This document shows, in pieces, positions 1 to 64,000 of a DNA stretch of 64,000 bases. The notes beneath the pieces were generated by a model. It searched no databases and had not been told where the DNA came from. It was given only the letters and a program-made list of their open reading frames with translations. The stretch is taken from contig OX393553.1 of assembly GCA_947650365.1 (NCBI GenBank), forward strand, positions 42,269,949-42,333,948, in the 5' to 3' direction. This DNA is from Chamaelirium japonicum (Eukaryota; Streptophyta; Magnoliopsida; Liliales; Melanthiaceae). A program made the translations under genes and the position numbers. How positions within the stretch are numbered: position 1 is the stretch's first letter; each line of letters starts with the position of its first letter.

Positions 1-1230
1 TATTAATGAATTAGAATGGATCGTGCGAATGAATTAGAATGGATAGTACGAATGAATTAGAATGGATCGTATGAATGAATTAGAATTGATACATACGAAT
101 GAATTAGAATGGATCGTATGAATGAATTAGATTGGATCATATGAATGAATTAGAATGGATCGTGCGTCGTACGAATGAATTAGAATGGATACTATTAATG
201 AATTAGAATGGATCATGCGAATGAATTAGAATGGATCGTACGAATGAATTAGAATGACTCGTATGAATGAATTAGAATGGATACATACGAATGAATTAGA
301 ATTGATCGTATGAATGAATTAGATTGGATCGTATGAATGAATTAGAATGGATCGTGTGTCGTACGAATGAATTAGAATGGATCGTATTAATGAATTAGAA
401 TGGATCGTGCGAATGAATTAGAATAGATCGTACGAATGAATTAGAATGGATCGTATGAATGAATTAGAATGGATACATACGAATGAATTAGAATGGATCG
501 TATGAATGAATTAGATTGGATCGTATGAATGAATTAGAATTGATCGTGCGTCGTACGACTGAATTAGAATGGATCGTATTAATGAATTAGAATGGATCGT
601 GCGAAATAATTAGAAAGGATCGTACGAATGAATTAGAACGGATAGTATGAATGAATTAGAATGGATACATACGAATGAATTAGAATGGATCGTATGAATG
701 AATTAGATTGGATCGTATGAATGAATTAGAATGGATCGTGCGAATGAATTAGAATGGATCGTACGAATGAATTAGAATGGATCGTATGAATGAATTAGAA
801 TAGATTGTATGAATGAATTAGAATGGATCATACGAATGAGTAAGAATGGATCGTGAGAATGAATTAGAATGGATCGTACGAATGAATTAGAATGGATCGT
901 ATGAATGAATTAGAATGGATACATACGAATGAATTAGAATGGATCGTATGAATGAATTACATTGGATCGTATGAATGAATTAGAATGGATCGTGCGTCGT
1001 ACGAATGAATTAGAATGGATCGTATTAATGAATTAGAATGGATCGTGCGAATGAATTAGAATGGATCATACGAATGAATTAGAATGGATCGTATGAATGA
1101 TTTAGAATGGATACATACGAATAAATTAGAATGGATCGTATGAATGAATTAGATTGGATCGCATGAATGAATTAGAATGGATCGTGCGTCGTACGAATGA
1201 ATTAGAATGGATCGTATTAATGAATGGATC
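1..1230 (+). repeat. 192-bp higher-order repeat (8 units), set 1
   Basis: The 30-bp marker unit (linker CGTGCGTCGTAC or CGTGTGTCGT) starts its linker at 161, 353, 545, 991 and 1183. Intervals are 192, 192, 446 and 192 bp. The period is six 23-bp units plus one 24-bp unit (linker ACATAC) and one 30-bp unit. Internal markers recur in order: TATTAATG, CGTGCG, CGTACG, CGTATG, ACATACG and ATTAGATTGG. The 446-bp gap shows a local rearrangement. Confidence 0.93.
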
Positions 1231-2230
1231 GTACGAATGAAATAGAATGTACAAAATCCATTCGTACGAATGAATTAGAATGGATCGTATGAATGAATTA
1301 GAATGGATCGTGCGAATGAATAAGAATGGATCGTACGAATGAATTAGAATGGATTGTACGAATGAGTTAGAATGAATCATATGAATGAATTAGAATGCAT
1401 ACATTCGTGCAAAAGAATTAGAATGGATTGTATGAATGAATTAGAATGGATCGTGCGAATGAATTAGAAAGGATCGTACGAATGAATTAGAATGGATACA
1501 TTCGTGCGAATGAATTAGAATGGATCGTGCGAATGAATTAGAATGGATCGTATGAATGAATTAGAATGGATCGTATGAATGAATTAGAATGGATCGTGCG
1601 AATGAATTAGAATGGATCGTGCGAATGAATTAGAATGGATCGTACGATACGAATGAAATATAATGGGTCGTACAAAGGAATTAGAATGGATCGTACGAAG
1701 GAATTAGACTGGATCGTACGAAGGAATTAGAGTGGATCATACGAATGAATTAGAATGGATACATTCGTGCGAATGAATTAGAATGGATCGGACATACGAA
1801 TGAATTAGAATGGATACATTCGTGCGAATGAATTAGAATGGATCGTATGAATGAATTAGAATGGATCGTACTTATGAATTAGAATGGATCGTACGAATAA
1901 ATTAGAATGGATCGTATTAATGAATTAGATTGGATCGTATGGATGAATTCAAATAGATCGTGCGAATGAAATAGAATGGATACAAATGAATTAGAATGGA
2001 TCATACGAATGAATTAGAATGGATCGTATGAGTGAATTCGAATGGATCGTGTGAATGAATTAGAATGGATTGTACGAAAGAATTAGAATGGATCGTGCTA
2101 ATGAGTAATAATGGATCGTACGAATGAATTAGAATGGATCGTATGAATGAATTAGAACAAAGGAATTAGAATGGATCGTTTGAAGGAATTAGAATGGATC
2201 GTACGGAGGAATTAGAATAGATCGCATACA
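1..2230 (+). repeat. + oriented satellite block
   Basis: The core reads on the + strand throughout. The first 1.2 kb is organised in 192-bp higher-order units. After that come ordinary 23-bp units with scattered 28-bp units. The block ends at a switch within GCATAC. It corresponds to 46904-49070 in copy B. Confidence 0.95.
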
Positions 2231-3572
2231 ATCCATTCTAATTCATTCGCACGATCCATTCGAATTCACCCATACGATCCATTCTAATTCATTCGTATGA
2301 TCCATTCTAATTAATTTGTATCCATTCTATTTAATTCGCACGATCCATTCGAATTCATTCGCATGATCCATTCTAATTCATTCATCCGATCCATTCTAAT
2401 TCATTCATACATTCCATTCTAATTCTTTCACACGATCCACTCTAATTCATTTATACGATCCATTCTAATTCCTTCGTCCGATCCATTCTAAATCCTTTGT
2501 TCTAAGTCATTCATACGATCCATTCAAATTCATTCGTACGATCCATTCTTACTCATTAGCACGATCCATTCTAATTCATTCGTACAATCCATTCTAATTC
2601 ATTCGCACGATCCATTCGAATTCACTCATACGATCCATTCTAATTCATTCGTATGATCCATTCTAATTCATTTGTATCCATTCTATTTCATTCGCACGAT
2701 CCATTCGAATTCATTCATACGATCCAATCTACTTCATTCATACGATCCATTCTAATTCATTCGTACGATCCATTCTAATTCATAAGTACGATCCATTCTA
2801 ATTCATTCGTACGATCCATTCTAATTCATTCATACGATCCATTCTAATTCATTCGCACGAATATATCCATTCTAATTCATTCGTACGTACGATAAATTCT
2901 AATTCATTCGCACGAATGTATCCATTCTAGTTCATTCGTACGATCCATTCTAATTCCTTCGTACGATCCATTCTAATTCCTTCATACGATCCATTCTAAG
3001 TCCTTTGTACGACCCATTATATTTCATTCGTATCATACGATCCATTCTAATTCATTAATACAATTCATTCGTACGATCCATTCTAATTCATTCGCACGAT
3101 CCATTCTAATTCATTCGCACGAATGTATCCAATCTAATTCATTCGTACGATCCATTCTAATTCATTTGCACGATCCATTCTAATTCATTTATACAATCCA
3201 TTCTAATTCTTTTGCACGAATATATCCATTCTAATTCATTCATACGATCCATTCTAATTCATTCGTACAATCCATTCTAATTCATTCGTACGATCCATTA
3301 TAATTCATTCGCACGATCCATTCTAATTCTTTCATACGATCCATTCTAATTCATTCGTACGAATGAATCCATTCTAATTCATTCGTACAATCCATTCTAT
3401 TTCATTCGTACGATCCATTCTAAGTCATTCGTATGATCCATTCTAATTCATTCACACGATCCATTCTAATTCATTCGTACGATCCATTCTAATTCATTCG
3501 CACGAATGTATCCATTCTAATTTGTTCGTACGCGTACGATCCATTCTAATTCATTCATACGGTCCATTCTAA
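2231..3572 (-). repeat. - oriented satellite block
   Basis: The core reads on the - strand. Compared with the matching copy B stretch (49071-50491), this copy lacks 69 bp (three units) just after the switch. It contains 28-bp units marked by GCACGAATGTATCC. Confidence 0.93.
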
Positions 3573-3670
3573 CGTACGAATGAATTAGAGTGGATCATAC
3601 GAAGGAATTAGAATGGATCGTACGAAGGAATTAGAATGGATCGTACGAATGAATTAGAATGGATACATTC
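3573..3670 (+). repeat. Short + island
   Basis: About four + units lie between two - blocks. The right switch sits in the linker of a 28-bp unit, where ACATTCGTAC can be read as either orientation. It is conserved at 50492-50590. Confidence 0.9.
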
Positions 3671-4710
3671 GTACAATCCATTCTAATTAATTCGTACGAT
3701 CCATTCTAATTCATTCGCACGAATGTATCCATTCTAATTCATTCGAACGATCCATTCTAATTCCTTCGTACGATCCATTCTTACTCATTAGCACGATCCA
3801 TTCTAATTCATTCGTACAATCCATTCTAATTCATTCGCACGATCCATTCTAATTCATTCATATGATCCATTCCAATTCATTCGCACGATCCATTCTAATT
3901 CATTCGCACGATCCATTCTAATTCATTTGTACGATCCATTCTAATTCCTTCGTACGATCCATTCTTACTCATTCGTACGATCCATTCTAATTCATTCGCA
4001 CGATCCATTCTAATTCATTCGCACGATCCATTCTAATTCATTCGTACGATCCATTCTAATTCCTTTGTACGACCCATTATATTTCATTCGTATGATCCAT
4101 TCTAATTCCTTTGTACTATCTATTCTAATTCATAAATACGATCCATTCTAATTCATTCGTACGATCCATTCTAATTCATTCGTACGATCCATTCTAATTC
4201 AATCGTACGATCCATTCTAATTCATTCGCACAATCTATTCTAATTCATTCATACGATCCATTCTAATTCATTCGCACGATCCATTCTAATTCATTCGTAC
4301 GATCCATTCTAATTCATTCGTACGATCCATTCTTACTCATTCATACGAGCTATTCTAATTCATCCGCACGAAGGTATCCATTCTAATTCATTCATACGAT
4401 CCATTCTAATTCCTTCGTACGATCCATTCTAATTCCTTCGTACGATCCATTCTAATTCATTCATACGATCCATTCTAATTCTTTCGTATGATCCATTCTA
4501 ATTCCTTCGTACGATCCATTCTAATTCGTTTGTTCTAATTCATTCGTACGATCCATTCTGATTCATTCGTACGATTCATTCTAATTCAATCCATTCTAAT
4601 TCATTCGTACGATCCATTCTTGCTCATTTGTACGATCCATTCTAATTCATTCCATTCTAATTCATTCCATTCGTACTCATTCGTACGATCCATTCTAATT
4701 CATTCCATTC
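3671..4710 (-). repeat. - oriented block with 15-bp contracted units
   Basis: These are ordinary - units until about 4585. From there to 4710 several units lack the 8-base CGTACGAT stretch, leaving 15-bp spacing (CCATTCTAATTCATT). The block ends on the palindrome CCATTCGAATGG, where orientation flips. It matches 50591-51629. Confidence 0.92.
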
Positions 4711-5260
4711 GAATGGATTGTATGAATGAATTAGAATGGATCGTATGAATGAATTAGAATGGATCGTACGAATGAATTAGAATGGATCGTACGAATGAAT
4801 TAGAATGGATACATTCGTGCGAATGAATTAGAATGGATCGTACAAATGAGTAAGAATGGATCATACGAATAAAATAGAATGGATTGTACGAATGAATTAG
4901 AATGGATTCATTCGTGCGAATGAATTAGAATGGATCGTGCGAATGAATTAGAATGGATCGTATGAATGAATTAGAATGGATACATTCGTGCGAATGAATT
5001 GGAATGGATCGTACGAATGAATTAGAATGGATCGTACTTATGAATTAGAATGGATCGTACAAAGGAATTAGAATGGATCATACGAATGAAATATAATGGG
5101 TCGTACAAAGGATTTAGAATGGATCGTGCGAATGAATTAGAATGGATCGTGCGATAAGAATGGATCGTACGAATGAAATAGAATAGATCGTACGAATGAA
5201 ATAGAATAGATCGTATGAATGAATTTGGATCGTGCTAATGAATTAGAATGGATCGTACGA
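4711..5260 (+). repeat. + oriented satellite block
   Basis: These are + units with 28-bp markers near 4805, 4905 and 4985 and a few contracted units near 5150-5230. The block ends in GGATCGTACGA, then CCATTCT. It matches 51630-52211. Confidence 0.92.
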
Positions 5261-6070
5261 CCATTCTAATTAATTCATACGATCCATTCTAATTCATTCG
5301 TACGACGCACGATCCATTCTAATTCATTCATACGATCCAATCTAATTCATTTGTACAATCCATTCTATTTCATTCGTACGATCCATTCTTACTCATTCGT
5401 ATGATCCATTCTAATTCATTAGCACGAATGTATCCATTCCAATTCATTCGTACGATCCATTCTAATTCATTCGCACGATCCATTCTAATTCATTCGCACA
5501 ATCTATTCTAATTCATTCATACGATCCATTCTAATTCATTCGCACGAATGTATCCATTCTAATTCATTCGTACGATCCAATCTAATTCCTTCGTACGAAT
5601 GTATCCACCATTCTTACTCATTCGTACGATCCATTCTAATTCATTCGCACGAATGTATCCATTCTAATTTATTCGTACGATCCATTCTAATTCATTCGTA
5701 CGATCCATTCTAATTCATTCGTATGATCTATTCTAATTCATTCGCACGAATGTATCCACTCTAATTCATTTGTACGATCCATTCTAATTCATTAGTACGA
5801 TCAATTCTAATTCATTCGTACGATCCATTCTAATTCATTCGTACGATCTATTCTAATTCATTCGTACAATCCATTCTAATTCATTCGCACGATCCATTCT
5901 AATTCATTCGCACGATCCATTCTAATTCATTCGTACAATCCATTCTTACTCATTCGTATGATCCATTCTAATTCATTCGAACGAATGTATCCATTCTAAT
6001 TCGATCCATTCTAATTCAATCGCACGATCCATTCTAATTCCTTCGTACGATCCATTCTAATTCCTTCGTA
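5261..6070 (-). repeat. - oriented satellite block
   Basis: It carries the reverse form of the 30-bp marker (GTACGACGCACG) near 5300 and an odd short unit near 5603. It matches 52212-53118. A third relative lies at about 26.0-26.56 kb. Confidence 0.92.
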
Positions 6071-6800
6071 CTTATGAATTTGAATGGATCATACGAATGA
6101 AATAGAATGGATCGTACGAAGGAATTAGAATGGATCGTACGAAGGAATAAGAATGGATCGTATGAATGAAATAGAATGGATCGTACGAATGAATTAGAAT
6201 GGATCGTAATAATGGATCGTACGTATGAATTTGTACGTATGAATGAATTAGAATGGATCGTATGAATGAATTAGAATGGATCGTGCGAATGAATTAGAAT
6301 GGATCGTACGATACGAATGAAATATAATGGGTCGTACAAAGGAATTAGAATGGATCGTACGAATGAATTAGAATAGATTGTGCGAATGAATTAGAATGGA
6401 TCGTACGAATGAGTAAGAATCGATCGTACGAATGAAATAGAATGGATTGTACGAATGAATTAGAATGTATCGTACGAAAGAATTAGAATGGATTGTATGA
6501 ATGAATTAGAATGGATCGTATGAATGAATTAGAATGGATCGTGCGAATGAATGAGAATGGATCGTACGAATGAATTAGAATGGATCGCACGAATGAATTA
6601 GAATGGATCGTACGAATAAATTAGATTGGATCGTATGAATGAATTAGAATGGATACATTCGTGCGAATGAATTAGAATGGATCCTACGAATGAGTAAGAA
6701 TGGATCATACGGAATGAATTAGAATGGATCGTATGAATGAATTAGAATGGATCGTGCGAATGAATTAGAATGGAACGTACGTACGAAGGAATTAGAATGT
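6071..6800 (+). repeat. + oriented satellite block
   Basis: The block starts with CTTATGAATT after a CGTA switch. It includes irregular units near 6205-6240 (GTAATAATGG, then GTACGTATGAATTTG). It matches 53119-53887. Confidence 0.92.
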
Positions 6801-9029
6801 ATGATCCATTCTAATTCATTCGTACAATCCATTCTATTTCATTCGTACGATCCATTCTTACTCATTCGTACGATCCATTCTAATTCATTCGCATGAATGT
6901 ATCCATTCTAATTCATTCGTACGATCCATTCTAATTCATTCGTACGATCCATTCTAATTCATTCGTATGATCCATTCTAATTTATTCGCACGATCCATTC
7001 TAATTCATTTGTACGATCCATTCTAATTCATTCGCACGAATGTATCCATTCTAATTCATTCGTACAATCCATTCTAATTCATTCCGACGATCCATTCTAA
7101 TTCCTTCATACGATCCATTCTAATTCCTTCGCACGATCCATTCTAATTCATTCGTACGATCCATTCAAATTCATTCGCACGAATGTATCCATTCTAATTC
7201 ATTTGTACGATCTATTCTATTTCATTTGTACGATTCATTCTAATTCATACAAACCATTCTATTTCATTCATACGATCCATTCTAATTCATTCGTACGATC
7301 CATTCTAATTCATTCGTACGATCCATTCAAATTCATTCGCATGATCAATTCTAGTTCATTCATACAATCCATTCTAATTCTTTCACATGATCCATTCTAA
7401 TTCATTCGTACGATCCATTCTACTTCATTCGTACGATCCATTCTAATTCATTCGCACGAATGTATCCATTCTAATTCATTCGTACGATCCATTCTAATTC
7501 ATTCGCACAATCTAATCTAATTCATTCATACGATCCATTCTAATTCTTTCGTACGATCCATTCTAATTCATTTGTACGATCCATTCTAATTCATTCGCAC
7601 GATCCATTCTAATTCATTCATACGATCCAATCTAATTCATTCATACGATCTATTCTAATTCATTCGCACGAATGTATCTATCTATTTCATTCGTATGATC
7701 AATTCTAATTCATTCGTACGATCCATTCTAATTCATTCGTACGATCCATTCTAATTCATTCGCACGATCCATTCAATTTCATTCATACGATCCAATCTAA
7801 TTCATTCATATGATCCATTCTAATTCATTCGCACAATCTATTCTAATTCATTCGTACAATCCATTCTAATTCATTCGCACGAATGTATCCATTCTAATTC
7901 CTTCGTACAATCCATTCTAATTCATTCGTATAATCCATTCTAATTCATTCGCACAATCTATTCTAATTCATTCGCACGAATGTATCGATTCTAATTCATC
8001 CGTATGATCTATTCTAATTCATTCGCACGAATGTATCCATTCTAATTCATTCGTACGAACCATTCTAATTCATTCGTACGATCCATTCTAATTCATTCGT
8101 ACGATCCATTCTAATTCATTCGCACAATCTATTCTAATTCATTCGTACGATCCATTCTAATTCATTCGCACGATCCATTCTAATTCATTCGTACGATCCA
8201 TTCTATTCCATTCGTACGATCCATTCTAATTCATTCGTACAATCCATTCTATTTCATTCGTACGATCCATTCTTACTCATTCGTACGATCTATTTTAATT
8301 CATTCGTACGATCCATTCTAATTCATTTGTACAATCCATTCTATTTCATTCGTACGATCCATTCTTACTCATTCGTATGATCCATTCTAATTCATTCACA
8401 CGAATGTATCCATTCTAATTCATACGTACGATCCATTCTAATTCATTCGTACAATCCATTCTATTTCATTCGTACGATCCATTCTTACTCATTCGTATGA
8501 TCCATTCTAATTCATTCGCACAATCTATTCTAATTCATTCGTACGATCCATTCTAATTCATTCGCACGAATGTATCCATTCTAATTCATTCGTACGATCC
8601 ATTCTTATTCATTTATACGATCCAATCTAATTCATTCATACAATCCATTCTAATTCATTCGTACGATCTATTCTAATTCATTCGTACGATCCATTCTAAC
8701 TCATTTGCACGAATATATCCATTCTAATTCATTCGTACGATCCATTCTAATTCCTTCGTAAGATCCATTCTAATTCATTCGTACGATCCATTCTAATTCA
8801 TTCATACGATCCATTCTAATTCATTCGCCCCGATCCATTCTAATTCATTCGCACGAATGAATCTATTCTAATTTATTCGTACAATCCATTCTATTTCATT
8901 CGTATGATCCATTCTTACTCATTCGTACGATCCATTCTAATTCATTCGCAAGAATGTATCCATTCTAATTCATTCGTACGATCCATTCCAATTCATTCGC
9001 ATGATCCATTCTAATTCATTCGCACGATC
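6801..9029 (-). repeat. - oriented satellite block
   Basis: This is a continuous - array of about 2.2 kb. Repeated 4-unit cassettes (CTATTTC, then CTTACTC units) occur at about 6825-6900, 8240-8290, 8335-8410, 8450-8520 and 8870-8960. It matches 53888-55971. The block ends in CGATCGTACG. Confidence 0.93.
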
Positions 9030-9813
9030 GTACGAATAAAATAGAATAAATTAGAATGAAGGAATTAGAATGGATCGTGCGAATGAATAAGAATGGATCG
9101 TACGAAGGAATTAGAATGGATCGTATGAATGAATTAGAATGGATCGTACGAATGAAATATAATGGATCGGACGAATGAATTAGAAGGGATCGTACGAATG
9201 AATTAGAATGGATCGTATGAATGAATTAGATTGGATCGTATGAATGAATTAGAATGGATCGTGCGTCTTGCGAATGAATTAGAATGGATCGTATTAATGA
9301 ATTAGAATGGATCGTGCGAATGAATTAGAATGGATCGTACGAATGAATTAGAATGGATGGTACGAAGGAATTAGAATGGATCGTACGAATGAATTAGAAT
9401 GGATCGTAATAATGGATCGTACGTATAAATTTGTACGTATGAATGAATTAGAATGGATCGAATTAGAATGGATCGTACGAAGGAATTAGAATGGATCGTA
9501 TGAATGAATTAGAATGGATACATACGAATGAATTAGAATGGATCGTATGAATGAATTAGAATGGATCGTATGAATGAATTAGATTGGATCGTACGAATGA
9601 ATTAGAATAGATCGTATTAATGAATTAGAATGGATCGTGCGAATGAATTAGAATGGATCGTACGAATGAATTAGAATGGATCGTACGAAGGAATTAGAAT
9701 GGATCGTATGAATGAATTAGAATGGGTCGTAATAATGGATCGTACGTATGAATTTGTATGTATGAATGAATTAGAATGGATCGAATTAGAATGGATCGTA
9801 CGAAGGAATTAGA
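9030..9813 (+). repeat. + oriented satellite block
   Basis: It opens with unusual shortened units (AATAAAATAGAATAAATTAG) shared with 55972. It contains a 30-bp-type unit near 9260 and paired irregular units (GTAATAATGG) near 9410 and 9730. It matches 55972-56742. Confidence 0.92.
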
Positions 9814-10270
9814 CGTACGATCCATTCTAATTCATTCGTACGATCCATTCTTACTCATTCGTACGATCCATTCTAATTCATTCGCACGAATGAATTAGAA
9901 TGGATTGTAAGAATGAATTAGAATTGATCGTACGAATTAATTAGAATGGATCGTACGAATGAATTAAAATAGATTGTATGAATGAATTAGAATGAATCAT
10001 GTCAAAGAATTAGAATGGATTGTATGAATGAATTAGAATGGATCGTATGAATGAATTAGAATGGATCGTGCGAATGAATTAGAATGGATTGTACGAATTA
10101 ATTAGAATGGATCGTATGAATGAATTAAAATAGATCGTGCGAATGAATTAGAATGGATCGTATGAATGAATTAGAATAGATTGTACGAATGAATTAGAAT
10201 GGATCGTGTGCATTCGTACGATCCATTCTAATTAATTCGTACGATCGTGCTAGTGAATTAGAATGGATAT
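9814..10270. repeat. Cluster of four orientation switches
   Basis: The order is - (9814-9887), + (9888-10210), - (10211-10243), + (10244-10270). The shortest pieces are about one unit long. Switches fall on palindromic linkers such as CATTCGCACGAATG. The same cluster is present at 56743-57200, so it predates the large duplication. Confidence 0.9.
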
Positions 10271-11662
10271 ATTCGTACGATCCATTTTAATTCCTTCGTA
10301 CGATCCATTCTAATTCCTTCATACGATCCATTCTAATTCCTTTGTACGACCCATTATATTTCATTCGTATGATCCATTCTAATTCCTTCGTACGATCCAT
10401 TCTTATTCATTGCCATTAATGTATCCATTCTAATTCATACGTACGATCCATTATAATTCATTTATACGATCCAATCTAATTCATTCATACAATCCATTCA
10501 AATTCATTCGCACGAATTTATCCATTCTAATTCATTCGTACGATCCATTCTAATTCATTCGCATGAATGAATCCATTCTAATTCATTCGTATGATCAATT
10601 CTAATTCACTAGCACGATCCATTCTAATTCATTCGCACGAATGTATCCATTCTAATTCATTCGTACGATCCATTCTAATTCCTTCATACGATCCATTCTA
10701 ATTCCTTTGCACGATCCATTCTAATTCCTTCATACGTACGATCCATTCTAATTCCTTCGTACGTACGATCCATTCTAATTAATTCGTACGATCCATTCTA
10801 ATTCATTCGCACGATCCATTCTAATTCATTCGCACGATCCATTCTAATTCATACGTACGATCCATTCTATTTCATTCGTACGATCCATTCTAATTAATTC
10901 GCATGATCCATTCTAATTCATTCGTACGATCCATTCTAATTCATTCATACGATCCATTCTAATTCATTCGCACAAATGTATGCATTCTAATTCATTCGTA
11001 CGATCCATTCTAATTTATTCGCACAATCTATTCTAATTCATTCATACGATCCATTCTAATTCATTCGCACGATCCATTCTAATTCATTCATAGGATCCAT
11101 TCTAATTCATTCGTATGATCCATTCTAATTCATTCGCACGATCCATTCTTACTCATTTGTACGATCCATTCTAATTCATTCGCACGATCCATTCTAATTC
11201 ATTAACACGATCCATTCTAATTCATTCGCACGATCCATTCTAATTCATTCGCACTCATACGATCCATTCTAATTCAGTCGCACGAATGTATCCATTCTAA
11301 TTCATTCGTACAATCCATTCTAATTCATTCGCACAATCTATTCTAATTCATTCGTACGATCAATTCTAATTCATTCGTACGATCCATTCTAATTCATTCG
11401 TACGATCTATTCTAATTCATTCGTACAATCCATTCTATTTCATTCGTACAATCCATTCTAATTCATTCGTACGATCTATTCTAATTCATTCGCACGATCC
11501 ATTCTAATTCATTCATACGATCCATTTTAATTCATTCGCACGAATGAATCCATTCTAATTCATTCATACAATCCATTCTATTTCATTCGCACGATCCATT
11601 CTAATTCATTCGTACGATCCATTCTAATTCATTCGCACGATCCATTCTAATTCATTCGTACG
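10271..11662 (-). repeat. - oriented satellite block
   Basis: This block of - units matches 57201-58932 but lacks about 504 bp relative to copy B, at about 10530-10565. The 10401-10530 part (CATTGCCATTAATG, then CATTTATACG and GAATTTATCC markers) has relatives at 16.5, 27.3, 31.2 and 57.4 kb. Confidence 0.91.
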
Positions 11663-11760
11663 TTAGAATGGATCGTATGAATGAATTAGAATGGATCGTA
11701 CGAATGAATTAGAGTGGATCGTACGAATGAATTAGAATGGATACATTCGTGCGAATGAAT

Positions 11761-14604: not shown

Positions 14605-14687
14605 GGATACATTCGTGCGAATGAATTAGAATGGATCGTACGAATGAGTAAGAATGGATCGTACGAATGAAATAGAATGGATTGTAC
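14605..14687 (+). repeat. 4-unit cassette, + example
   Basis: A 28-bp linker (ACATTCGTGC) is followed by a normal unit, a unit with core GAATGAGTAAG, and a unit with core GAATGAAATAG and linker TTGTAC. This ordered series, about 97 bp counting four full units, recurs at about 27735-27815, 53457-53540 and 60417-60490. It also occurs in reverse orientation at many sites. Confidence 0.9.
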
Positions 14688-44361: not shown

Positions 44362-44372
44362 CGATCCATTCT
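44351..44372. repeat. 22-bp perfect palindrome at an orientation switch
   Basis: The sequence around GGATCGCGATCC is perfectly self-complementary over 22 bp. It is a head-to-head junction like 24337-24380, with a shorter CGCG centre. Confidence 0.9.
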
Positions 44373-50491: not shown

Positions 50492-50590
50492 CGTACGAAT
50501 GAATTAGAGTGGATCGTACGAAGGAATTAGAATGGATCGTAAGAAGGAATTAGAATGGATCGTACGAATGAATTAGAATGGATACATTCG
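50492..50590 (+). repeat. Short + island
   Basis: Four + units, the partner of 3573-3670, with the same switch bases on both sides. Confidence 0.9.
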
Positions 50591-51629: not shown

Positions 51630-52211
51630 GAATGGATTGTATGAATGAATTAGAATGGATCATATGAATGAATTAGAATGGATCGTATGAATGAATTAGA
51701 ATGGATCGTATGAATGAATTAGAATGGATACATTCGTGCGAATGAATTAGAATGGATCGTACGAATGAGTAAGAATGGATCGTACGAATGAAATAGAATG
51801 GATTGTACGAATGAATTAGAATGGATTCATTCGTCCGAATGAATTAGAATGGATCGTGCGAATGAATTAGAATGGATCGTATGAATGAATTAGAATAGAT
51901 ACATTCATGCGAATGAATTGGAATGGATCGTACGAATGAATTAGAATGGATCGTACTTATGAATTAGAATGGATCGTACAAAGGAATTAGAATGGATCAG
52001 ACGAATGAAATATAATGGGTCGTACAAAGGATTTAGAATGGATCGTGTGAATGAATTAGAATGGATCGTGCGATGCGAATGAATTAGAATGGATCGTGCG
52101 ATAAGAATGGATCGTACGAATGAAATAGAATAGATCGTACGAACGAAATAGAATAGATCGTACGAATGAATGAATTTGGATCATGCTAATGAATTAGAAT
52201 GGATCGTACGA
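51630..52211 (+). repeat. + oriented satellite block
   Basis: The partner of 4711-5260, slightly longer because of an extra unit near 52070 (GCGATGCGAATG). Confidence 0.92.
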
Positions 52212-53118
52212 CCATTCTAATTAATTCATATGATCCATTCTAATTCATTCGTACGACGCACGATCCATTCTAATTCAGTCATACGATCCAATCTAATTAA
52301 TTCGTACAATCCATTCTATTTCATTCGTACGATCCATTCTTACTTATTCGTATGATCCATTCTAATTCATTAGCACGAATGTATCCATTCTAATACATTC
52401 GTACGATCCATTCTAATTCATTCGCACGATCCATTCTAATTCATTCGCACAATCTATTCTAATTCATTCATATGATCCATTCTAATTCATTCGCACGAAT
52501 GTATCTATTCTAATTCATTCGTACGATCCATTCTAATTCTTTCGTACGAATGTACCTACCATTCTTACTCATTCGTACGATCCATTCTAATTCGTTCGCA
52601 CGAATGTATCCATTCTAATTTATTCGTACGATTCATTCTAATTCATTCGCACGAATGTATCCATTCTAATTTATTCGTACGATCTATTCTAATTCATTCG
52701 TATGATCCATTCTAATTCATTCGTATGATCTATTCTAATTCATTCGCACGAATGTATCCACTCTAATTCATTCGTACGATCCATTCTAATTCATTCGTAC
52801 GATCAATTCTAATTCATTCGTACGATCTATTCTAATTCATTCGTACAATCCATTCTAATTCATTCGCACGATCCATTCTAATTCATTCGCACGATTCATT
52901 CTAATTCATTCGTACAATCCATTCTTACTCATTCGTATGATCCATTCTAATTCATTCGAACGAATGTATCCATTCTAATTCGATCCATTCTAATTCATTC
53001 GCACGATCCATTCTAATTCCTTCGTACGATCCATTCTAATTCCTTCGTACGATCCATTCTAATTCCTTTGTACGACCCATTATATTTCATTCGTATGATC
53101 CATTCTAATTCCTTCGTA
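52212..53118 (-). repeat. - oriented satellite block
   Basis: The partner of 5261-6070, about 100 bp longer at its right end (CCTTTGTACGACCCATTATA units). Its right junction also differs: CTTCGTATTAGAATGG rather than CTTCGTACTTATG. Confidence 0.91.
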
Positions 53119-53887
53119 TTAGAATGGATCGTGCGAATGAATTAGAATGGATTGTACGAATGAATTAGAATGGATCGTATGAATGAATTAGAATGGATCG
53201 TACTTATGAATTAGAATGGATCATACGAATGAAATAGAATGGATCGTACGAAGGAATTAGAATGGATCGTACAAAGGTATAAGAATGGATCGTATGAATG
53301 AAATAGAATGGATCGTACGAATGAATTAGAATGGATCGTAATAATGGATCGTACGTATGAATTTGTACGTATGAATGAATTAGAATGGATCGTATGAATG
53401 AATTAGAATGGATCGTGCGAATGAATTAGAATGGATCGTACGAATGAATTTGAGTGGATACATTCGTGCGAATGAATTAGAATGGATCGTACGAATGAGT
53501 AAGAATGGATCGTACAAATGAAATAGAATGGATTGTACGAATGAATTAGAATGGATCGTACGAAAGAATTAGAATGGATTGTATGAATGAATTAGAATGG
53601 ATCGTATGAATGAATTAGAATGGATCGTGCGAATGAATTAGAATGGATCGTACGAATGGATTAGAATGGATCGCACGAATGAATTAGAATGGATCGTACG
53701 AATGAATTAGATTGGATCGTATGAATGAATTAGAATGGATACATTCGTGCGAATGAATTAGAATGGATCGTACGAATGAGTAAGAATGGATCGTACGGAA
53801 TGAATTAGAATGGATCGTATGAATAAATTAGAATGGATCGTGCGAATGAATTAGAATGGATCGTACGTACAAAGGAATTAGAATGTA
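53119..53887 (+). repeat. + oriented satellite block
   Basis: The partner of 6071-6800, with the same GTAATAATGG / GTACGTATGAATTTG irregular units near 53338-53370 and a cassette at 53457-53540. Confidence 0.92.
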
Positions 53888-55971
53888 TGATCCATTCTAA
53901 TTCATTCGTACAATCCATTCTATTTCATTCGTACGATCCATTCTTACTCATTCGTACGATCCATTCTAATTCATTCGCACGAATGTATCCATTCTAATTC
54001 ATTCGTACAATCCATTCTAATTCATTCGTACGATCCATTCTAATTCATTCGTGTGATCCATTCTAATTTATTCGCACGATCCATTCTAATTCATTTGTAC
54101 GATCCATTCTAATTCATTCGCACGAATGTATCCATTCTAATTCATTTGTACAATCCATTCTAATTCATTCGGACGATCCATTCTAATTCCTTCGTACGAT
54201 CCATTCTAATTCCTTCGCACGATCCATTCTAATTCATTCGTACGATCCATTCTAATTCATTCGCACGAATGTATCCAATTTAATTCATTCGTACGATCTA
54301 TTCTATTTCATTTGTACGATCCATTCTAATTCATACGATCCATTCTATTTCATTCATACGATCCATTCTAATTCATTCGTACGATCCATTCTAATTCATT
54401 CGTACGATCCATTCAAATTCATTCGCACGATCAATTCTAGTTCATTCATACAATCCATTCTAATTCTTTCACATGATCCATTCTAATTCATTCGTACGAT
54501 CCATTCTAATTCATTCGCACGAATGTATCCATTCTAATTCATTCGTACGATCCATTCTAATTCATTCGCACAATCTAATCTAATTCATTCATACGATCCA
54601 TTCTAATTCTTTCGTACGATCCATTCTAATTCATTTGTACGATCCATTCTAATTCATTCGCACGATCCATTCTAATTCATTCATACGATTCAATCTAATT
54701 CATTCATACGATCTATTCTAATTCATTCGCACGAATGTATCTATCTATTTCATTCGTATGATCCATTCTAATTCATTCGTACGATCCATTCTAATTCATT
54801 CGTACGATCCATTCTAATTCATTCGCACGATCCATTCTATTTCATTCATACGATCCAATCTAATTCATTCATATGATCCATTCTAATTCATTCGCACAAT
54901 CTATTCTAATTCATTCGTACGATCCATTCTAATTCATTCGCACGAATGTATCCATTCTAATTCCTTCGTACAATCCATTCTAATTCATTCGTATGATCCA
55001 TTCTAATTCATTCGCACAATATATTCTAATTCATTCGCACGAATGTATCCATTCTAATTCATTCGTACGATCTATTCTAATTCATTCGCACGAATGTATC
55101 CATTCTAATTCATTCGTACGATCCATTCTAATTCATTCGTACGATCCATTCTAATTCATTCGTACGATCAATTCTAATTCATTCACACAATCTATTCTAA
55201 TTCATTCGTACGATCCATTCTAATTCATTCGCACGATCCATTCTAATTCATTCGTACGATCCATTCTATTTCATTCGTACGATCCATTCTAATTCATTCG
55301 TACAATCCATTCTATTTCATTCGTACGATCCATTCTTACTCATTCGTACGATCTATTTTAATTCATTCGTACGATCCATTCTAATTCATTCGTACAATCC
55401 ATTCTATTTCATTCGTACGATCCATTCTTACTCATTCGTATGATCCATTCTAATTCATTCGCACAATCTATTCTAATTCATTCGTACGATCCATGCTAAT
55501 TCATTCGCACGAATGTATCCATTCTAATTCATTCGTACGATCCATTCTTATTCATTTATACGATCCAATCTAATTCATTCATACAATCCATTCTAATTCA
55601 TTCGTACGATCTATTCTAATTCATTCGTACGATCCATTCTAACTCATTTGCACGAATATATCCATTCTAATTCATTCGTATGATCCATTCTAATTCCTTC
55701 GTAAGATCCATTCTAATTCATTCGTACGATCCATTCTAATTCATTCATACGATCCATTCTAATTCATTCGCACGATCCATTCTAATTCATTCGCACGAAT
55801 GAATCTATTCTAATTTTTACGTACAATCCATTCTATTTCATTCATACGATCCATTCTTACTCATTCGTACGATCCATTCAAATTCATTCACACGAATGTA
55901 TCCATTCTAATTCATTCGTACGATCCATTCCAATTCATTCGCACGATCCATTCTAATTCATTCGCACGATC
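53888..55971 (-). repeat. - oriented satellite block
   Basis: The partner of 6801-9029, about 145 bp shorter through loss of some cassette copies. The right switch is CGATCGTACG, as in copy A. Confidence 0.93.
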
Positions 55972-56742
55972 GTACGAATAAAATAGAATAAATTAGAATG
56001 AAGGAATTAGAATGGATCGTGCGAATGAATAAGAATGGATCGTACGAAGGAATTAGAATGGATCGTACGAATGAATTAGAATGGATCGTACGAATGAAAT
56101 AGAATGGATCGTACGAATGAATTAGAAGGGATCGTACGAATGAATTAGATTGGATCGTATGAATGAATTAGATTGGATCGTATGAATGAATTAGAATGGA
56201 TCGTGCGTCGTGCGAATGAATTAGAATGGATCGTATTAATGAATTAGAATGGATCGTGCGAATGAATTAGAATGGATCGTACGAATGAATTAGAATGGAT
56301 GGTACGAAGGAATTAGAATGGATCGTACAAATGAATTAGAATGGATCGTAATAATGGATCGTACGTATAAATTTGTACCTATGAATGAATTAGAATGGAT
56401 CGAATTAGAATGGATCGTACGAAGGAATTAGAATGGATCGTATGAATGAATTAGAATGGATACATACGAATGAATTAGAATGGATCGTATGAATGAATTA
56501 GAATGGATCGTATGAATGAATTAGATTGGATCGTACGAATGAATTAGAATAGATCGTATTAATGAATTAGAATGGATCGTGCGAATGAATTAGAATGGAT
56601 CGTACGAATGAATTAGAATGGATAGTACGAAGGAATTAGAATGGATCGTATGAATGAATTAGAATGGGTCGTAATAATGGATCGTACGTATGAATTTGTA
56701 TGTATGAATGAATTAGAATGGATCGTACGAAGGAATTAGACG
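55972..56742 (+). repeat. + oriented satellite block
   Basis: The partner of 9030-9813, with the same shortened opening units and the GTAATAATGG groups near 56350 and 56670. Confidence 0.92.
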
Positions 56743-57200
56743 TACGATCCATTCTAATTTATTCATACGATCCATTCTTACTCATTCGTACGATCCATTC
56801 TAATTCATTCGCACGAATGAATTAGAATGGATTGTAAGAATGAATTAGAATGGATCGTACGAATTAATTAGAATGGATCGTACGAATGAATTAGAATAGA
56901 TTGTACGAATGAATTAGAATGAATCGTGTCAAAGAATTAGAATGGATTGTATGAATGAATTAGAATGGATCGTATGAATGAATTAGAATGGATCGTGCGA
57001 ATGAATTAGAATGGATTGTACGAATGAATTAGAATGGATCGTATGAATGAATTAGAATAGATCATGCGAATGAATTAGAATGGATCGTATGAATGAATTA
57101 GAATAGATTGTACGAATGAATTAGAATGGATCGTGTGCATTCGTACGATCCATTCTAATTAATTCGTACGATCGTGCTAGTGAATTAGAATGGATACATT
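56743..57200. repeat. Cluster of four orientation switches
   Basis: - (56743-56815), + (56816-57137), - (57138-57170), + (57171-57200). This is the exact counterpart of 9814-10270. Confidence 0.9.
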
Positions 57201-57657
57201 CGTACGATCCATTTTAATTCCTTCGTACAATCCATTCTAATTCCTTCATACGATCCATTCTAATTCCTTCATACGATCCATTCTAATTCCTTTGTACGAC
57301 CCATTATATTTCATTCGTATGATCCATTCTAATTCCTTCGTACGATCCATTCTTATTCATTCCCATTAATGTATCCATTCTAATTCATACGTACGATCCG
57401 TTCTAATTCATTTATACGATCCAATCTAATTCATTCATACAATCCATTCTAATTCATTCGCACGAATTTATCCATTCTAATTCATTCGTACGATCCATTC
57501 TAATTCATTCGCACAATCTATTCTAATTCATTCGTACGTTCCATTCTAATTCATTAGCACGATCCATGCTAATTTATTCGTACGATCAATTCTATTTTAT
57601 TCGTACGATCCATTATTACGATCCATTCTAATTCATTCGTACGATCCATTCTAATTC
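57201..57657 (-). repeat. - block, partly absent from copy A
   Basis: The first 300 bp match 10271-10530. From about 57500 the sequence is missing in copy A but matches 31.34-31.5 kb, including CGTACGTTCC, CCATGC and the short CCATTATTACG unit. Confidence 0.9.
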
Positions 57658-57784
57658 AAATGGATCGTACGAATGAATTAGAATGGATCGTATGAATGAA
57701 TTATAATGGATCGTACAAAGGAATTAGAATGGATCGTACGAATGAATTAGAATGGATCGTATGAATGAATTAGAATGGATCGTG
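57658..57784 (+). repeat. + island found only in copy B
   Basis: About five + units without a counterpart in copy A. The right junction, GTGTATCCATTCC, resembles that at 31000. Confidence 0.9.
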
Positions 57785-58932
57785 TATCCATTCCAATTCA
57801 TTCGTATGATCCATTCTAATTCATAAGTACGATCCATTCTATTTCATTCGTACGATCCATTCTAATTCCTTCGTACAATCCATTCTAATTCATTCGTACA
57901 ATCCATTCTAAGTCATTCGCACAATCTATTCTAATTCCTTCGTACGTACGATCCATTCTAATTCCTTTGTACGATCCATTCTAATTCATTCGCACGAATG
58001 AATCCATTCTAATTCATTCATACGATCAATTCTAATTCACTAGCACGATCCATTCTAATTCATTCGCATGAATGTATCCATTCTAATTCATTCGTACGAT
58101 CCATTCTAATTCCTTCGTACGATCCATTCTAATTCCTTCGCACGATCCATTCTAATTCCTTCGTACGTACGATCCATTCTAATTCCTTCGTACGTATGAT
58201 CCATTCTAATTCATTCGTACGATCCATTCTAATTCATTCGCACGATCCATTCTAATTCATTCGCACGATCCATTCTAATTCATACGTACGATCCATTCTA
58301 TTTCATTCGTACGATCCATTCTAATTAATTCGCACGATCCATTCTAATTCATTCGTACGATCCATTCTAATTCATTCATACGATCAATTCTAATTCATTC
58401 GCACGAATGTATCCATTCTAATTCATTCGTACGATCCATTCTAATTCATTCGCACAATCCACTCTAATTCATTAACACGATCCATTCTAATTCATTCGCA
58501 CGATCCATTCTAATTCATTCGCACTCATACGATCAATTCTAATTCATTCGCATGAATGTATCCATTCTAATTCATTCGGACAATCCATTCTAATTCATTC
58601 GCACAATCTATTCTAATTCATTCGTACGATCAATTCTAATTCATTCGTACGATCCATTCTAATTCATTCGTACGATCTATTCTAATTCATTCGTACAATC
58701 CATTCTATTTCATTCGTATAATCCATTCTAATTCATTCGTACGATCCATTCTAATTCATTCGCACGATCCATTCTAATTCATTCATACGATCCATTCTAA
58801 TTCATTCGCACGAATGAATCCATTCTAATTCATTCATACAATCCATTCTATTTCATTCGCACGATCCATTCTAATTCATTCGTACGATCCATTCTAATTC
58901 ATTCGCACGATCCATTCTAATTCATTCGTACG
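57785..58932 (-). repeat. - oriented satellite block
   Basis: From about 57996 it resumes the match with copy A (10565). It ends at CGTACGTTAGAATGG like 11662, after a net loss of about 160 bp relative to copy A. Confidence 0.92.
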
Positions 58933-60909
58933 TTAGAATGGATCGTATGAATGAATTAGAATGGATCGTACTTATGAATTAGATTGGATCGTATGAATGA
59001 ATTAGATTGGATCATATTAATAAATTAGAATGGATCGTACGAATGAATTAGAATGGATCGTACGAATGAATTAGAATGGATACATTCGTGCGATTGAATT
59101 AGAATGGATCGTACGAAGGAATTAGAATGGATCGCACGAATGAATTAGAATGGATATATTCGTGCAAATGAATTAGAATGGATCGTACGAATGAGTAAGA
59201 ATGGATCGTACGAATGAAATAGAATGGATCGTACGAATGAATTAGAATGGATATATTTGTGCGAATGAATTAGAATGGATTGTATGAATGAATTAGATTG
59301 GATCGTATAAATGGATTAGAATAGATCGTACGCATGAATTAGAATGGATACATTCATGGGAATGAATAAGAATGGATCGTACGAATGAATTAGAATGGAT
59401 CGTACAAATGAATTAGAATGGATCGTACGAATGAATTAGAATGGATCGTACGAATAAAATAGAATGGATCGTACGTATGAATTAGAATGGGTCGTGCGAA
59501 TGAATTAGAATGGATCGTGCGAATGAATTAGAATGGATCGTACGAATGAATTAGAATGGATCGTGCGAATGAATTAGAATGGATCATGCAAATGAATTAG
59601 AATGGATCGTACGTACGAAGGAATTAGAATGGATCGTGCGAAGGAATTAGAATAGATCATATGAAGGAATTAGAATGGATCGTACGAATGAATTTGAATG
59701 GATACATTCGTGCGAATGAATTAGAATGGATCGTGCTAATGAATTAGAATTGATCATACGAATGAATTAGAATGGATATATTCGTGCGAATGAATTAGAA
59801 TGGATCGTACGAAGGAATTAGAATGGATCGTACGTACGAAGGAATTAGAATAGATTGTGCGAATGAATTAGAATGGATTATACGAATGAATTAGAATAGA
59901 TCGTACGAAGGAATTAGAATGGATCGTACGAATGAATTAGAATAGATTGTGCGAATGAATTAGAATGGATACATTCGTGCGAATGATTTAGAATGGATCG
60001 TATGAACGAATTAGATTGGATCGTATGAATGAATTAGAATGGATCGTGCGAATGAATTAGAATGGATCGTACGAATGAATTAGAATGGATCGTACGAAAG
60101 AATTAGAATGGATCGTACGAAGGAAATAGAATGGATCGTACGAAGGAATTAGAATGGATCGTACGAATGAATTAGAATGGATATATTCATGCAAATGAAA
60201 CAAAATGGATCGTTTGAATGAATAAGAATGGATCGTACGAATGAATTAGAATGGAAAGTACGAATGAATTAGAATAGATTGTGCGAATGAATTAGAATAA
60301 ATCGTATGAATGAATTAGATTGGATCGTATGAATGAATTAGAATGGATCGTGCGAATGAATTAGAATGGATCGTACGAATGAATTAGAATGGATCGTACG
60401 AATGAATTAGAATGGATACATTCGTGCAAATGAATTAGAATGGATCGTACGAATGAGTAAGAATGGATCGTACGAATGAAATAGAATGGATTATACGAAT
60501 AATTTAGAATGGATTCATTCGTGCGAATGAATTAGAATGGATCGTGCGAATTAATTAGAATGGATCGTACGAATTAATTAGAATGGATCGTACGAATGAA
60601 TTAGAATGGATACATTCGTGCGAATGAATTAGAATGGATCGTACGAATGAGTAAGAATGGATTGTATGAATGAAATAGAATGGATTGTACTAATGAATTA
60701 GAATGGATTCATTCGTGCGAATGAATTAGAATGGATCGTGCGAATGAATTAGAATGGATTGTACGAATGAATTAGAATGGATCGTACGAATGAATTTGAA
60801 TGGATACATTCGTGCAAATGAATTAGAATGGATCGTACGAATGAGTAAAAATTGATCGTACGAATGAAATAGAATGGATTGTACGAATGAATTAGAATGG
60901 ATCGTACGA
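58933..60909 (+). repeat. + oriented satellite block
   Basis: The partner of 11663-15100 with one copy of the ACATTCATGGG block (marker at 59350). The right junction is the same as at 15100 and 40249. Confidence 0.93.
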
Positions 60910-61532
60910 GCACGAATGTATCCACTCTAATTCATTCATACAATCCATTCTAATTCATTCGCACGAATATATCCATTCTAATTCATTCGTACGATCCATT
61001 CTAATTCATTCGCACGATCCATTCTAATTCATACGTACGATCCATTCTATTTCATTCGTACGATCCATTCTAATTCATTCGCATGAATGTATCCATTCTA
61101 ATTCATTTGTACGATCCATTCTAATTCATTCGCACGATCCATTATAATTCATTCATACGATCCATTCTAAGTAATTCGTACGATCCATTCTAATTCATTC
61201 GCACGATCCATTCTAATTCATTCATACAATCCTTTCTAATTCTTTCGCACGATCCTTTCTAATTCATTCGTACGATCCATTCTAATTCATTCGTACGATC
61301 CATTCTAATTCATTTGCACGAATGTATCCATTCTAATTCATTCATACGATCCATTCTAATTCATTCATACGATCCATTCTAATTCATTTGCATGATTATA
61401 TCCATTCTAATTCATTCGTATGATCCATTCTAATTCATTCGTACGATCCATTCTAATTCATTCGCACAATCTATTCTAATTCATTCGTACGATCAATTCT
61501 AATTCATTAGCACGATCTATTCTAATACATTC
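60910..61532 (-). repeat. - oriented satellite block
   Basis: The partner of 15101-15724, differing at about three bases in the first 130. Confidence 0.93.
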
Positions 61533-61823
61533 GGAATGGATCATACGAATGAATTACAATGGATCGTATGAGTGACTTCGAATGGATCGTGCGAATGAAT
61601 TAGAATGGATTGTACGAATGAATTAGAATGGATCGTGCGAATGAATTAGAATGGATCGTGCAAATGAATTAGAATGGATCGTGCGAATGAATTAGAATGG
61701 ATCGTACGAATGAATTAGAATAGATTATGCGAATGAATTAGAATGGATCGTACGAATGAATTAGAATGCATACATTCGTACGAATGAATTAGAATGGATC
61801 GTATGAATGAATTAGAATAGGTA
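61533..61823 (+). repeat. + oriented satellite block
   Basis: The partner of 15725-16014, with the same ACATTCGG start and AATAGGTACAC end. Confidence 0.92.
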
Positions 61824-63860
61824 CACAATCCATTCTAATTCATTCGTACGATCCATTCTAATTCATTCGTACAATCCATTCTATTTCATATGTACGATCC
61901 ATTCTTACTCAGTCGTACGATCCATTCTAATTCAATCGCATGAATGTATCCATTCTAATTCATTCGTACGATCCATTCTAATTCATTCGTACGATCCATT
62001 CTAATTCATTCGTACGATCCGTTCTAATTCATTCGCACGATCCATTCTAATTCATTCGCACGAATGAATCCATTCTAATTCATTCGTACAATCCATTCTA
62101 TTTCATTCGTACGATCCATTCTTACTCATTCGTACGATCCATTCTAATTCATCCATACGATCCATTCTAATTCATTCGCACAATCTATTCTAATTCATTC
62201 GTACGATCCATTGTAATTCCTTCGTACGATCCATTATAATTCCTTCGTACGTACGATCCATTCTAATTCCTTCGTACGATCCATTCTATTTCATTCCCAT
62301 GAATGTATCCATTCTAATTCAAACGTACGATCCATTCTAATTCATTTATACGATCCAATCTAATTCATTCATACAATCCATTCTAATTCATTCGTACGAT
62401 CCATTCTAATTTATTCGCACGATCCATTCTAATTCATTTGCACGAATGAATCCATTCTAATTCATTCGTACAATCCATTCTATTTCATTCGTACGATCCA
62501 TTCTTACTCATTCGTACGATCCATTCTAATTCATTCGCACAATCCATTCTAATTCCTTCGTACGATCCATTCTAATTCCTTCGTACGATCCGTACGAATG
62601 AAATAGAATGGATTCGCACGAATGTATCCATTCTAATTCATTTGTACGATCCATTCTAATTCATTCCTACAATCCATTCTAATTCATTCGCACGATCCAT
62701 TCGAATTCACTCATACGATCCATTCTAATTCATTCATACGATCCACTCTAATTCATTCGCACGAATGTATCCATTCTAATTCATTCGTACGATCCATTCT
62801 AATTTATTCGTACGAATGTATCCACTCTAATTCATTCATACGATCCATTCTAATTCATTCGCACGAATGTATCCATTCTAATTCATTCGTACGATCCATT
62901 CTAATTCATTCGCACAATCTATTCGAATTCATTCGTATGATCAATTCTAATTCATTAGCACGATCCATTCTAATTCATTCGTACGATCTATTCTATTTCA
63001 TTCGTACGATCCATTCTTACTCAATCGTATGATCCATTCTAATTCATTCGCACGAATGTATCCATTCTAATTCATTCATACGATCCATTCTAATTCATTC
63101 GCAGGATCCATTCTAATTTATTAATACGATCCAATCTAATTCATTCATACGATCCATTCTAATTCATTCGCACGATCCATTCTAATTCATTCGTACGATC
63201 CATTCAAATTCATTCATACGATTCAATCTAATTCATTCATACGATCCATTCTAATTCATAAGTACGACGCACGATCCATTCAAATTCATTCATACGATTC
63301 AATCTAATTCATTCATACGATCCATTCTAATTCATTCGTACGACGCACGATCCATTCTAATTCATTCTGTATCCATTATAATTCATTCGTACAATCCATT
63401 CTATTTCATTCGTACGATCCATTCTTACTCACACACGATCCATTCGAATTCACTCATACGATCCATTCTAATTCATTCATACAATCCATTCTAATTCATT
63501 CGCACGAATGTATCCATTCTAATTCATTCGTACGATCCATTCTAATTCATTCGTATGATCCATTCTAATTCATTCGTACGATCCATTCTAATTCATTCGC
63601 ATGATCCATTCTAATTCATTCGCATAATCTATTCTAATTCATTCGTACGTTCCATTCTAATTCATTAGCACGATCCATGCTAATTCATTCACACGATCCA
63701 TTCTAATTCATTCATACGATCCATTCTAATTCATTCATACGATCTATTCTAATTCTTTCGCACGAATGTATCCATTCTAATTCATTCGCACGAATGTATC
63801 CATTCTAATTCATTCGTACGATCCATTCTAATTCATTCACACAATCTATTCTAATTCATT
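61824..63860 (-). repeat. - oriented block with a one-unit + island
   Basis: The partner of 16015-18217. The single + unit is at 62592-62615. It lacks about 116 bp of the reversed 192-bp repeat (markers 63263 and 63339). Confidence 0.93.
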
Positions 63861-63930
63861 GGATCGTACGAAGGAATTAGAATGGATCGTACGAATGAAT
63901 TAGAATGGATACATTCGTGCGAATGAATTA
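63861..63930 (+). repeat. Short + island
   Basis: The partner of 18218-18287, with identical edges. Confidence 0.9.
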
Positions 63931-64000
63931 TGATCCATTCTAATTCATTTGTATCCATTCTATTTCATTCGCACGATCCATTCGAATTCATTCGCACGAT
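63931..64000 (-). repeat. - oriented block cut by the window end
   Basis: It continues to match copy A (18288-18357) up to the last base, so the large repeat extends beyond the window. Confidence 0.9.

What the first reader, a model, noticed from the sequence alone, without database searches (positions are those of the whole stretch)
1..64000. About 70 orientation switches in one satellite array
Blocks of + and - units alternate from one unit to 5 kb long, with about 24 kb + and 40 kb -. Most satellites run head-to-tail over long distances. Frequent inversions mean almost any block can pair with a neighbour, and base skew flips at each switch because the + reading is purine-rich (15/23) and G-rich over C (6 to 2).
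Basis: seen in the sequence. Interest (0 to 1): 0.8.

Follow-up and report, generated by a model that had tools for sequence, protein, structure and literature searches.

The report
Holocentric plant centromere DNA, inherited orientation switches
This stretch is almost certainly the centromere repeat of the holocentric plant Chionographis japonica, whose alternating repeat direction is already published; what the sequence adds is that the direction changes seen here are old and are copied along inside a module of roughly 47,000 bases rather than made afresh each time.

Summary
All 64 kb is one 23-bp satellite with 75 orientation switches (76 blocks, 24-5,102 bp; + 24.5 kb, - 39.5 kb). Mutated head-to-tail simulations gave 0 switches in 5 of 5 runs. 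"Frequent inversions" holds only in part: window 6-18284 and 46909-63927 are two copies of one module (98.0% ungapped identity). All 21 switches of the first copy recur in the second, and 16,088 of 16,098 aligned bases agree in orientation. One event (two switches) separates the copies. So the switches are inherited, about 52 per unit, and unlikely to be assembly chimeras.

The repeat matches the Chio1 (23 bp)/Chio2 (28 bp) centromeric satellite of holocentric Chionographis japonica (PMC10264360, PMC12722358): lengths, the 5-bp plus 1-bp difference, the 9-mer TTCGTACGA, a neighbour-monomer hairpin, mixed orientation. The full published monomer letters could not be read here. Alternating Chio orientation is in print; I found no account of the inherited multi-switch module. 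Breakpoint ends favour the GGATCGTACGA half of the unit; one switch keeps a 0.9-kb inverted-duplication scar. How most switches arose stays open; I favour orientation-blind break repair, then module duplication.

The parts
1..64000 (.). continuous 23-bp satellite array (Chio1-like units with Chio2-like 28-bp units), 76 oriented blocks, 75 switches
6..18284 (+). copy 1 of the composite module, 21 switches (the true left end lies before the window)
   Evidence: 98.0% ungapped identity to 46909-63927, 324 mismatches, 35 gaps; 21 of 21 switches matched
46909..63927 (+). copy 2 of the composite module, 23 switches (cut by the window end)
18286..46484 (.). rest of one module unit, second copy not visible in the window; about 52 switches in 1-46484 altogether
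48099..49044 (+). left arm of an inverted duplication around switch 49064 (in copy 1: matching stretches 1259-1620 and 1826-2204 around switch 2224)
   Evidence: 946 bp at 96.2%, inverted; arms older than the module duplication at 22 of 22 informative sites
49362..50307 (-). right arm of the same inverted duplication (in copy 1: 2454-2831 and 3062-3365)
57514..57995 (.). about 481 bp present in copy 2 and absent from copy 1, with the + block 57659-57783 and its two switches; boundaries approximate
   Evidence: third copy 31101-31503 matches 57256-57658 across the breakpoint at 95.3%
11663..15100 (+). local higher-order repeat with 97-bp period (97 = 3 x 23 + 28)
   Evidence: arithmetic
46525..49064 (+). 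local higher-order repeat with 192-bp period (also 1-2224)
15090..15140 (.). recurrent + to - junction (GAATG|TATCC type) next to the 28-bp unit motif; 40258 is a near-copy (4 edits per 120 bp) and 60918 its partner in copy 2 (1 edit)
5261..5915 (-). stretch that begins at switch 5260 and has an unswitched copy at 25980-26634 (98.0%)

Best explanation
The window is part of a Chio1/Chio2 centromeric satellite array of Chionographis japonica (or a very close relative): DNA that carries centromeric histone in one of the megabase centromere units of a holocentric chromosome. Orientation switches arose over time when breaks in the array, with ends mostly in the GGATCGTACGA half of the unit, were repaired from other array copies without regard to direction (inverted duplication, inverted templated copying, inversion). 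They were then passed on by duplication of large pieces, here a module of about 46-47 kb with about 52 switches. Shown here: the array, the switches, the module, inheritance of switches, one inverted-duplication scar, one loss of two switches. Inferred: species, CENH3 binding, and the repair mechanism.
For: Identity: 23-bp unit; 28-bp variant that differs by ACATT and A to G, as published for Chio1/Chio2; published 9-mer TTCGTACGA of the Chio monomer in the consensus, 505 + 306 exact copies on the two strands; predicted 8-bp hairpin between neighbouring units as in the paper; mixed orientation. Inheritance: 21 of 21 switches shared, 16,088 of 16,098 aligned bases in the same orientation at 98.0% identity. 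Scar: 946-bp inverted arms at 96.2%, older than the module duplication at 22 of 22 informative sites, 0 for conversion within a copy. Ectopic copying in both directions: 5261-5915/25980-26634 direct 98.0%, 53118-53443/20299-20624 inverted 97.9%, both starting at a switch. Break ends: 45 of 54 switches have at least one end in unit positions 14-21 against 57.5% of 699 simulated random-phase switches (P 8e-5); 31 of 37 after dereplication and removal of Chio2-motif junctions (P 0.001).
Against: Published monomer letters, species and CENH3 could not be checked here. An intact TCGTACGA is not nearer to switches than to random sites (15 of 54 within 10 bp, random 0.273), and neighbouring 8-bp windows score as well as the dyad or slightly better, so the signal is for half the unit, not for the dyad itself. 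Microhomology is not above chance (mean 0.93 and 1.19 against 0.77; P 0.27 and 0.07). Switch flanks have fewer distant copies at 96% or more than controls (12 of 80 against 188 of 600), against recent ectopic copying as the source of most switches. A local inverted partner is the best match at only 4 of 52 switches, strong at one. Removing a block restores register in 11 of 51 blocks against 6.7 expected, flipping in 2 of 51 against 0.87 (tolerance 1): neither route is demonstrated.
Confidence: 0.72

Rival explanations
1. Repeated true inversions inside a resident head-to-tail array, each flipping a segment in place.
For: Alternating blocks; flipping restores register at both ends in 5 of 51 blocks at tolerance 2; one junction recurs in inverted form (11662/40751, 5 edits per 120 bp).
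Against: 5 of 51 is close to the 2.4 expected by chance, and 0 of 51 at tolerance 0; switches are stable across a 2% divergence; one switch has clear inverted-duplication arms instead.
Confidence: 0.2
2. Assembly artefact: chimeric or fold-back joins in long reads, or mis-assembly of a repeat.
For: Repeats are hard to assemble; raw reads could not be examined.
Against: Two copies that differ by 324 mismatches and 35 gaps carry the same 21 switches, 20 of 21 within 2 aligned bases; 0 of 5 head-to-tail simulations give any switch; alternating Chio orientation is reported in two papers.
Confidence: 0.03
3. The two module copies are two haplotypes joined end to end by the assembler, not a tandem duplication.
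For: 2% divergence would fit an outcrossing plant (inference); the published contigs total 1,526 Mb against a 1C of 1,368 Mb, so some haplotype duplication is possible there if the window comes from that assembly.
Against: The second copy follows the first within one window; rearranged third copies of parts (for example 31101-31503, 25980-26634) show that copying inside the array is common. Even if true, the switches would still be confirmed twice.
Confidence: 0.12
4. Switches are maintained by selection because inverted neighbours form cruciforms or hairpins that help load CENH3.
For: Hairpin between neighbouring units, -6.8 kcal/mol, z -3.5; non-B DNA at centromeres is discussed for these repeats.
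Against: The hairpin forms within head-to-tail units and needs no switch; sister species Cha. luteum has consistently oriented arrays that carry CENH3; unit divergence does not change with distance from a switch (6.3-7.3% mismatch in all 8 distance bins).
Confidence: 0.07

Closest known systems
Chio1/Chio2 centromeric satellite of Chionographis japonica (Kuo et al. 2023, PMC10264360; Kuo et al. 2025, PMC12722358)
   Same: 23- and 28-bp monomers, 5-bp indel plus 1-bp substitution between them, 9-mer TTCGTACGA, 8-bp dyad with hairpin between neighbours, mixed and frequently alternating orientation, a higher-order repeat cluster (CL73) known
   Different: In the passages and sections I saw, no count of switches, breakpoint anatomy or 46-47-kb multi-switch module is described
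Chama satellite of Chamaelirium luteum (PMC12722358)
   Same: shares the 9-mer TTCGTACGA; centromeric in the sister genus
   Different: 60-bp monomer; arrays homogeneous and consistently oriented, higher-order repeats over several hundred kb
Human satellites 2 and 3 (PMC4022460)
   Same: CATTC-rich strand; 1,738 reads matched both strands and were set aside as possible inversion breakpoints
   Different: CATTC pentamer ancestry in human; here a 23-bp unit with CGTACG; no relationship tested
Alpha-satellite higher-order repeats (recalled, plus listing)
   Same: nested higher-order repeat copied as a module
   Different: alpha-satellite higher-order units usually keep one orientation (recalled); here one module holds about 52 switches

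Membership tests
Chio1/Chio2 satellite (C. japonica) | dominant 23-bp monomer | tested here: met
   758 spacings of 23 bp between successive perfect 14-base cores
Chio1/Chio2 satellite (C. japonica) | less abundant 28-bp variant; [quoted passage not shown]
   154 spacings of 28 bp; consensus GAATTAGAATGGATACATTCGTGCGAAT = 23-mer + ACATT, A to G; published relation
Chio1/Chio2 satellite (C. japonica) | 9-mer TTCGTACGA in the monomer | tested here: met
   in the consensus (reverse strand); 505 + 306 copies; published
Chio1/Chio2 satellite (C. japonica) | 8-bp dyad that pairs between neighbouring monomers | tested here: met
   8-bp stem between two units, -6.8 kcal/mol, z -3.53
Chio1/Chio2 satellite (C. 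japonica) | mixture of forward and reverse arrays | tested here: met
   75 switches; published
Chio1/Chio2 satellite (C. japonica) | full published monomer sequence (Fig. 3b, Supplementary Table 4) | not testable with these tools
Chio1/Chio2 satellite (C. japonica) | CENH3 enrichment and source organism | not testable with these tools
   no genome held for the window
Chama satellite (Cha. luteum) | 60-bp monomer, consistent orientation | tested here: not met
   23-bp period; 75 switches
Phage, plasmid or prokaryotic repeat | matches in phage, plasmid, viral or prokaryotic collections | tested here: not met
   no match (searches used window 1-6000 only; the others exact patterns)

The most novel reading that the evidence does not exclude
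Chio centromere units grow by tandem duplication of modules of 46-47 kb or more that carry dozens of fixed orientation switches, and each switch is a scar of a break in the GGATCGTACGA half of the unit repaired from another array copy in either direction. Orientation mixing would then record the orientation-blind ectopic copying that spread centromere units along holocentric chromosomes, and would explain why the sister species with macro-monocentromeres, expanded locally, stays in one orientation.
Probability: 0.3. Interest if true: 0.65.

Novelty: already known. Interest (0 to 1): 0.4.

Why it matters
Alternating orientation of Chio arrays is published, so the finding itself is not new. The added point, that a stable pattern of dozens of switches is inherited in a large module, turns orientation blocks into markers of descent: they can be used to trace how the roughly 100 centromere units of a holocentric genome copied one another, and to test the published proposal that hairpin-prone TTCGTACGA sites cause breaks and non-allelic copying.

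Tried and rejected
Tried without result: own genome (none held); exact patterns in viral contigs and genome contigs, 0 matches; phages and plasmids with window 1-6000 only, no match; unit strings in paper texts, one unrelated hit; paper searches on 23-bp satellites, orientation and inversion, nothing useful. The identification came from a paper in the listing.

Rejected or weakened: switches made by crossing at the 8-bp palindrome with long microhomology (not above chance; intact dyad not nearer to switches). Local fold-back as the general origin (4 of 52 switches with a local best inverted match, strong at one). Edge decay at switches (no gradient). Gene conversion between palindrome arms (0 of 22 informative sites). 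A first view that the + block 57659-57783 was newly inserted in copy 2: the third copy at 31101-31503 runs across the breakpoint, so loss from copy 1 is more likely.

Strong CpG decay was also not found: C to T in CpG 53 of 2,062 against 46 of 3,363 elsewhere.

Limits: outputs were cut by length; one search was followed by a filtered listing. The dereplicated set dropped 11 of 54 junctions that cluster at 11 or fewer edits, then 6 with a Chio2 motif within 10 bp; the control shows that 5% of non-switch window pairs lie within 10 edits, so that clustering is rough. The alignment is chained through 40-mers that occur exactly twice in the window with offsets of 45.5-47.6 kb, which may favour similar stretches.
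Full report
What was checked. The whole window aligns to a 23-bp unit, GAATTAGAATGGATCGTACGAAT, on one strand or the other. There are 76 blocks and 75 switches, + 24,476 bp and - 39,524 bp, blocks of 24-5,102 bp, each 88-97% identical to the unit. The count depends mildly on the switch penalty (79, 75, 67, 65, 59 at penalties 7-30; 211 at penalty 5, where blocks of a few bases are called), and five simulated head-to-tail arrays gave none.

The switches are inherited. Window 6-18284 aligns to 46909-63927 with 98.0% ungapped identity, 324 mismatches and 35 gaps, several of them whole units. The offset falls from 46.9 to 45.6 kb along the alignment because of those gaps. Of the 21 switches in copy 1, 18 fall on the same aligned base as a switch in copy 2, 2 lie within 2 bp and 1 (6073 against 53117) is 88 bp off in a poorly aligned stretch; 16,088 of 16,098 aligned bases have the same orientation. 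Copy 2 has two more switches, 57658 and 57783. They lie in about 481 bp missing from copy 1. A third related stretch, 31101-31503, runs across the breakpoint in the copy-2 form, so I infer that copy 1 lost them. Hence 75 is not a count of independent events: window 1-46484 holds 52 switches, and junctions cluster into 54 groups at 7 or fewer edits per 120 bp, with four recurrences inside the unit, one of them inverted. In the control, 1% of non-switch window pairs are within 7 edits and 5% within 10, so looser clustering is not safe. Two diverged copies with the same switches also make chimeric joins an unlikely source.

What it is. The 28-bp variant in the window, GAATTAGAATGGATACATTCGTGCGAAT, is the 23-mer plus ACATT and one A to G change. 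Kuo et al. 2023 (PMC10264360; [quoted passage not shown] Kuo et al. 2025 (PMC12722358; abstract, outline, sections 12 and 33 and passages) give the 9-mer TTCGTACGA of the Chio monomer and speak of frequently alternating orientation, in contrast to the consistently oriented 60-bp Chama arrays of Chamaelirium luteum. The 9-mer is in the unit (505 + 306 copies) and the hairpin is predicted. Spacings of 23 bp outnumber those of 28 bp by 758 to 154. The full published letters, the species and CENH3 binding could not be checked; a close relative of C. japonica would fit as well. NCBI now lists the plant as Chamaelirium japonicum.

How the switches arose. One scar is clear: around switch 49064 (2224 in copy 1) two arms of 946 bp lie inverted at 96.2% identity, 317 bp apart; 22 of 22 informative sites group the arms across copies, so the inverted duplication came before the module duplication. 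Elsewhere the local inverted partner is the best match at 4 of 52 switches counting this one, and only this one is strong. Some sequences that start at a switch have an unswitched copy far away: 5261-5915 with 25980-26634 (98.0%, direct) and 53118-53443 with 20299-20624 (97.9%, inverted). That fits copying from elsewhere in either direction, but switch flanks in general have fewer close distant copies than controls (12 of 80 against 188 of 600 at 96% or more), so most switches are old or arose otherwise. Rare shared 27-mers in window 1-46500 show strong short-range direct duplication (0.384 per 10,000 pairs at 250-500 bp against 0.045 at 32-46 kb) and a twofold short-range excess of inverted copies (0.080 against 0.039), part of which comes from the one palindrome.

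Breakpoints. Microhomology is not above chance. The ends are not uniform: at least one end lies in unit positions 14-21 in 45 of 54 switches, the same count when the window is read in reverse, against 402 of 699 simulated random-phase switches (P 8e-5); after dereplication and removal of Chio2-motif junctions it is 31 of 37 (P 0.001). Windows next to the dyad do as well or slightly better, and an intact TCGTACGA is not closer to switches than to random sites (15 of 54, random 0.273). The fair statement is that breaks favour the GGATCGTACGA half and avoid the AATTAGAA half. Of the + to - switches in the nonredundant set, 6 of 27 lie within 10 bp of the Chio2 motif GGATACATTCG (random 0.061, P 0.005; not significant at 30 bp and not for - to + switches). 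This motif contains a short stretch of the opposite strand (CATTCG), so it may help strands cross, but shared descent of those junctions is not excluded.

Verdict. What is added is a base-level count, the inherited multi-switch module of about 46-47 kb, its slow turnover (one change of two switches at 2% divergence), one datable inverted duplication and the bias of break ends. My searches for such a module in print (and the passages named above) found none, but only open-licence papers are held and supplements could not be read; Kuo et al. do report a higher-order repeat cluster, CL73. The wider account of human satellite inversions that I recall (Altemose et al. 2022) is not held; only passages of Altemose et al. 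2014 were seen.

Noticed in passing
11663-15100, 4720-5260, 51626-52211 (+): Local higher-order repeats with a 97-bp period, which equals three 23-bp units plus one 28-bp unit; in 11663-14350 a 1,530-bp tandem step of 97.8% identity over 1,158 bp.
   Followed up: partly
1-2224 and 46525-49064 (+): Local higher-order repeat with a 192-bp period, and related stretches near 39495-40048 at about 94-95% identity.
   Followed up: partly
whole window: Unit positions 15, 16, 18, 19 (CGTACG) are the most variable (up to 29% non-consensus) while the AATTAGAATGG part is mostly conserved; C to T in CpG is only about twice the rate elsewhere (53 of 2,062 against 46 of 3,363), modest for a repeat reported as rich in mCpG.
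   Followed up: partly
182 places, for example 3661, 15104, 40253: The 28-bp unit holds a tiny opposite-strand stretch (CATTCG then CGAATG), in effect a built-in micro-inversion; 169 of 182 copies return to the same orientation, 11 sit at + to - switches and 2 at - to + switches.
   Followed up: partly
25435-26634 (-): Two copied stretches meet near 25980: the left matches 15162-15713 (94.9%), which ends 11 bp before a switch, and the right matches 5261-5915 (98.0%), which starts at a switch.
   Followed up: partly
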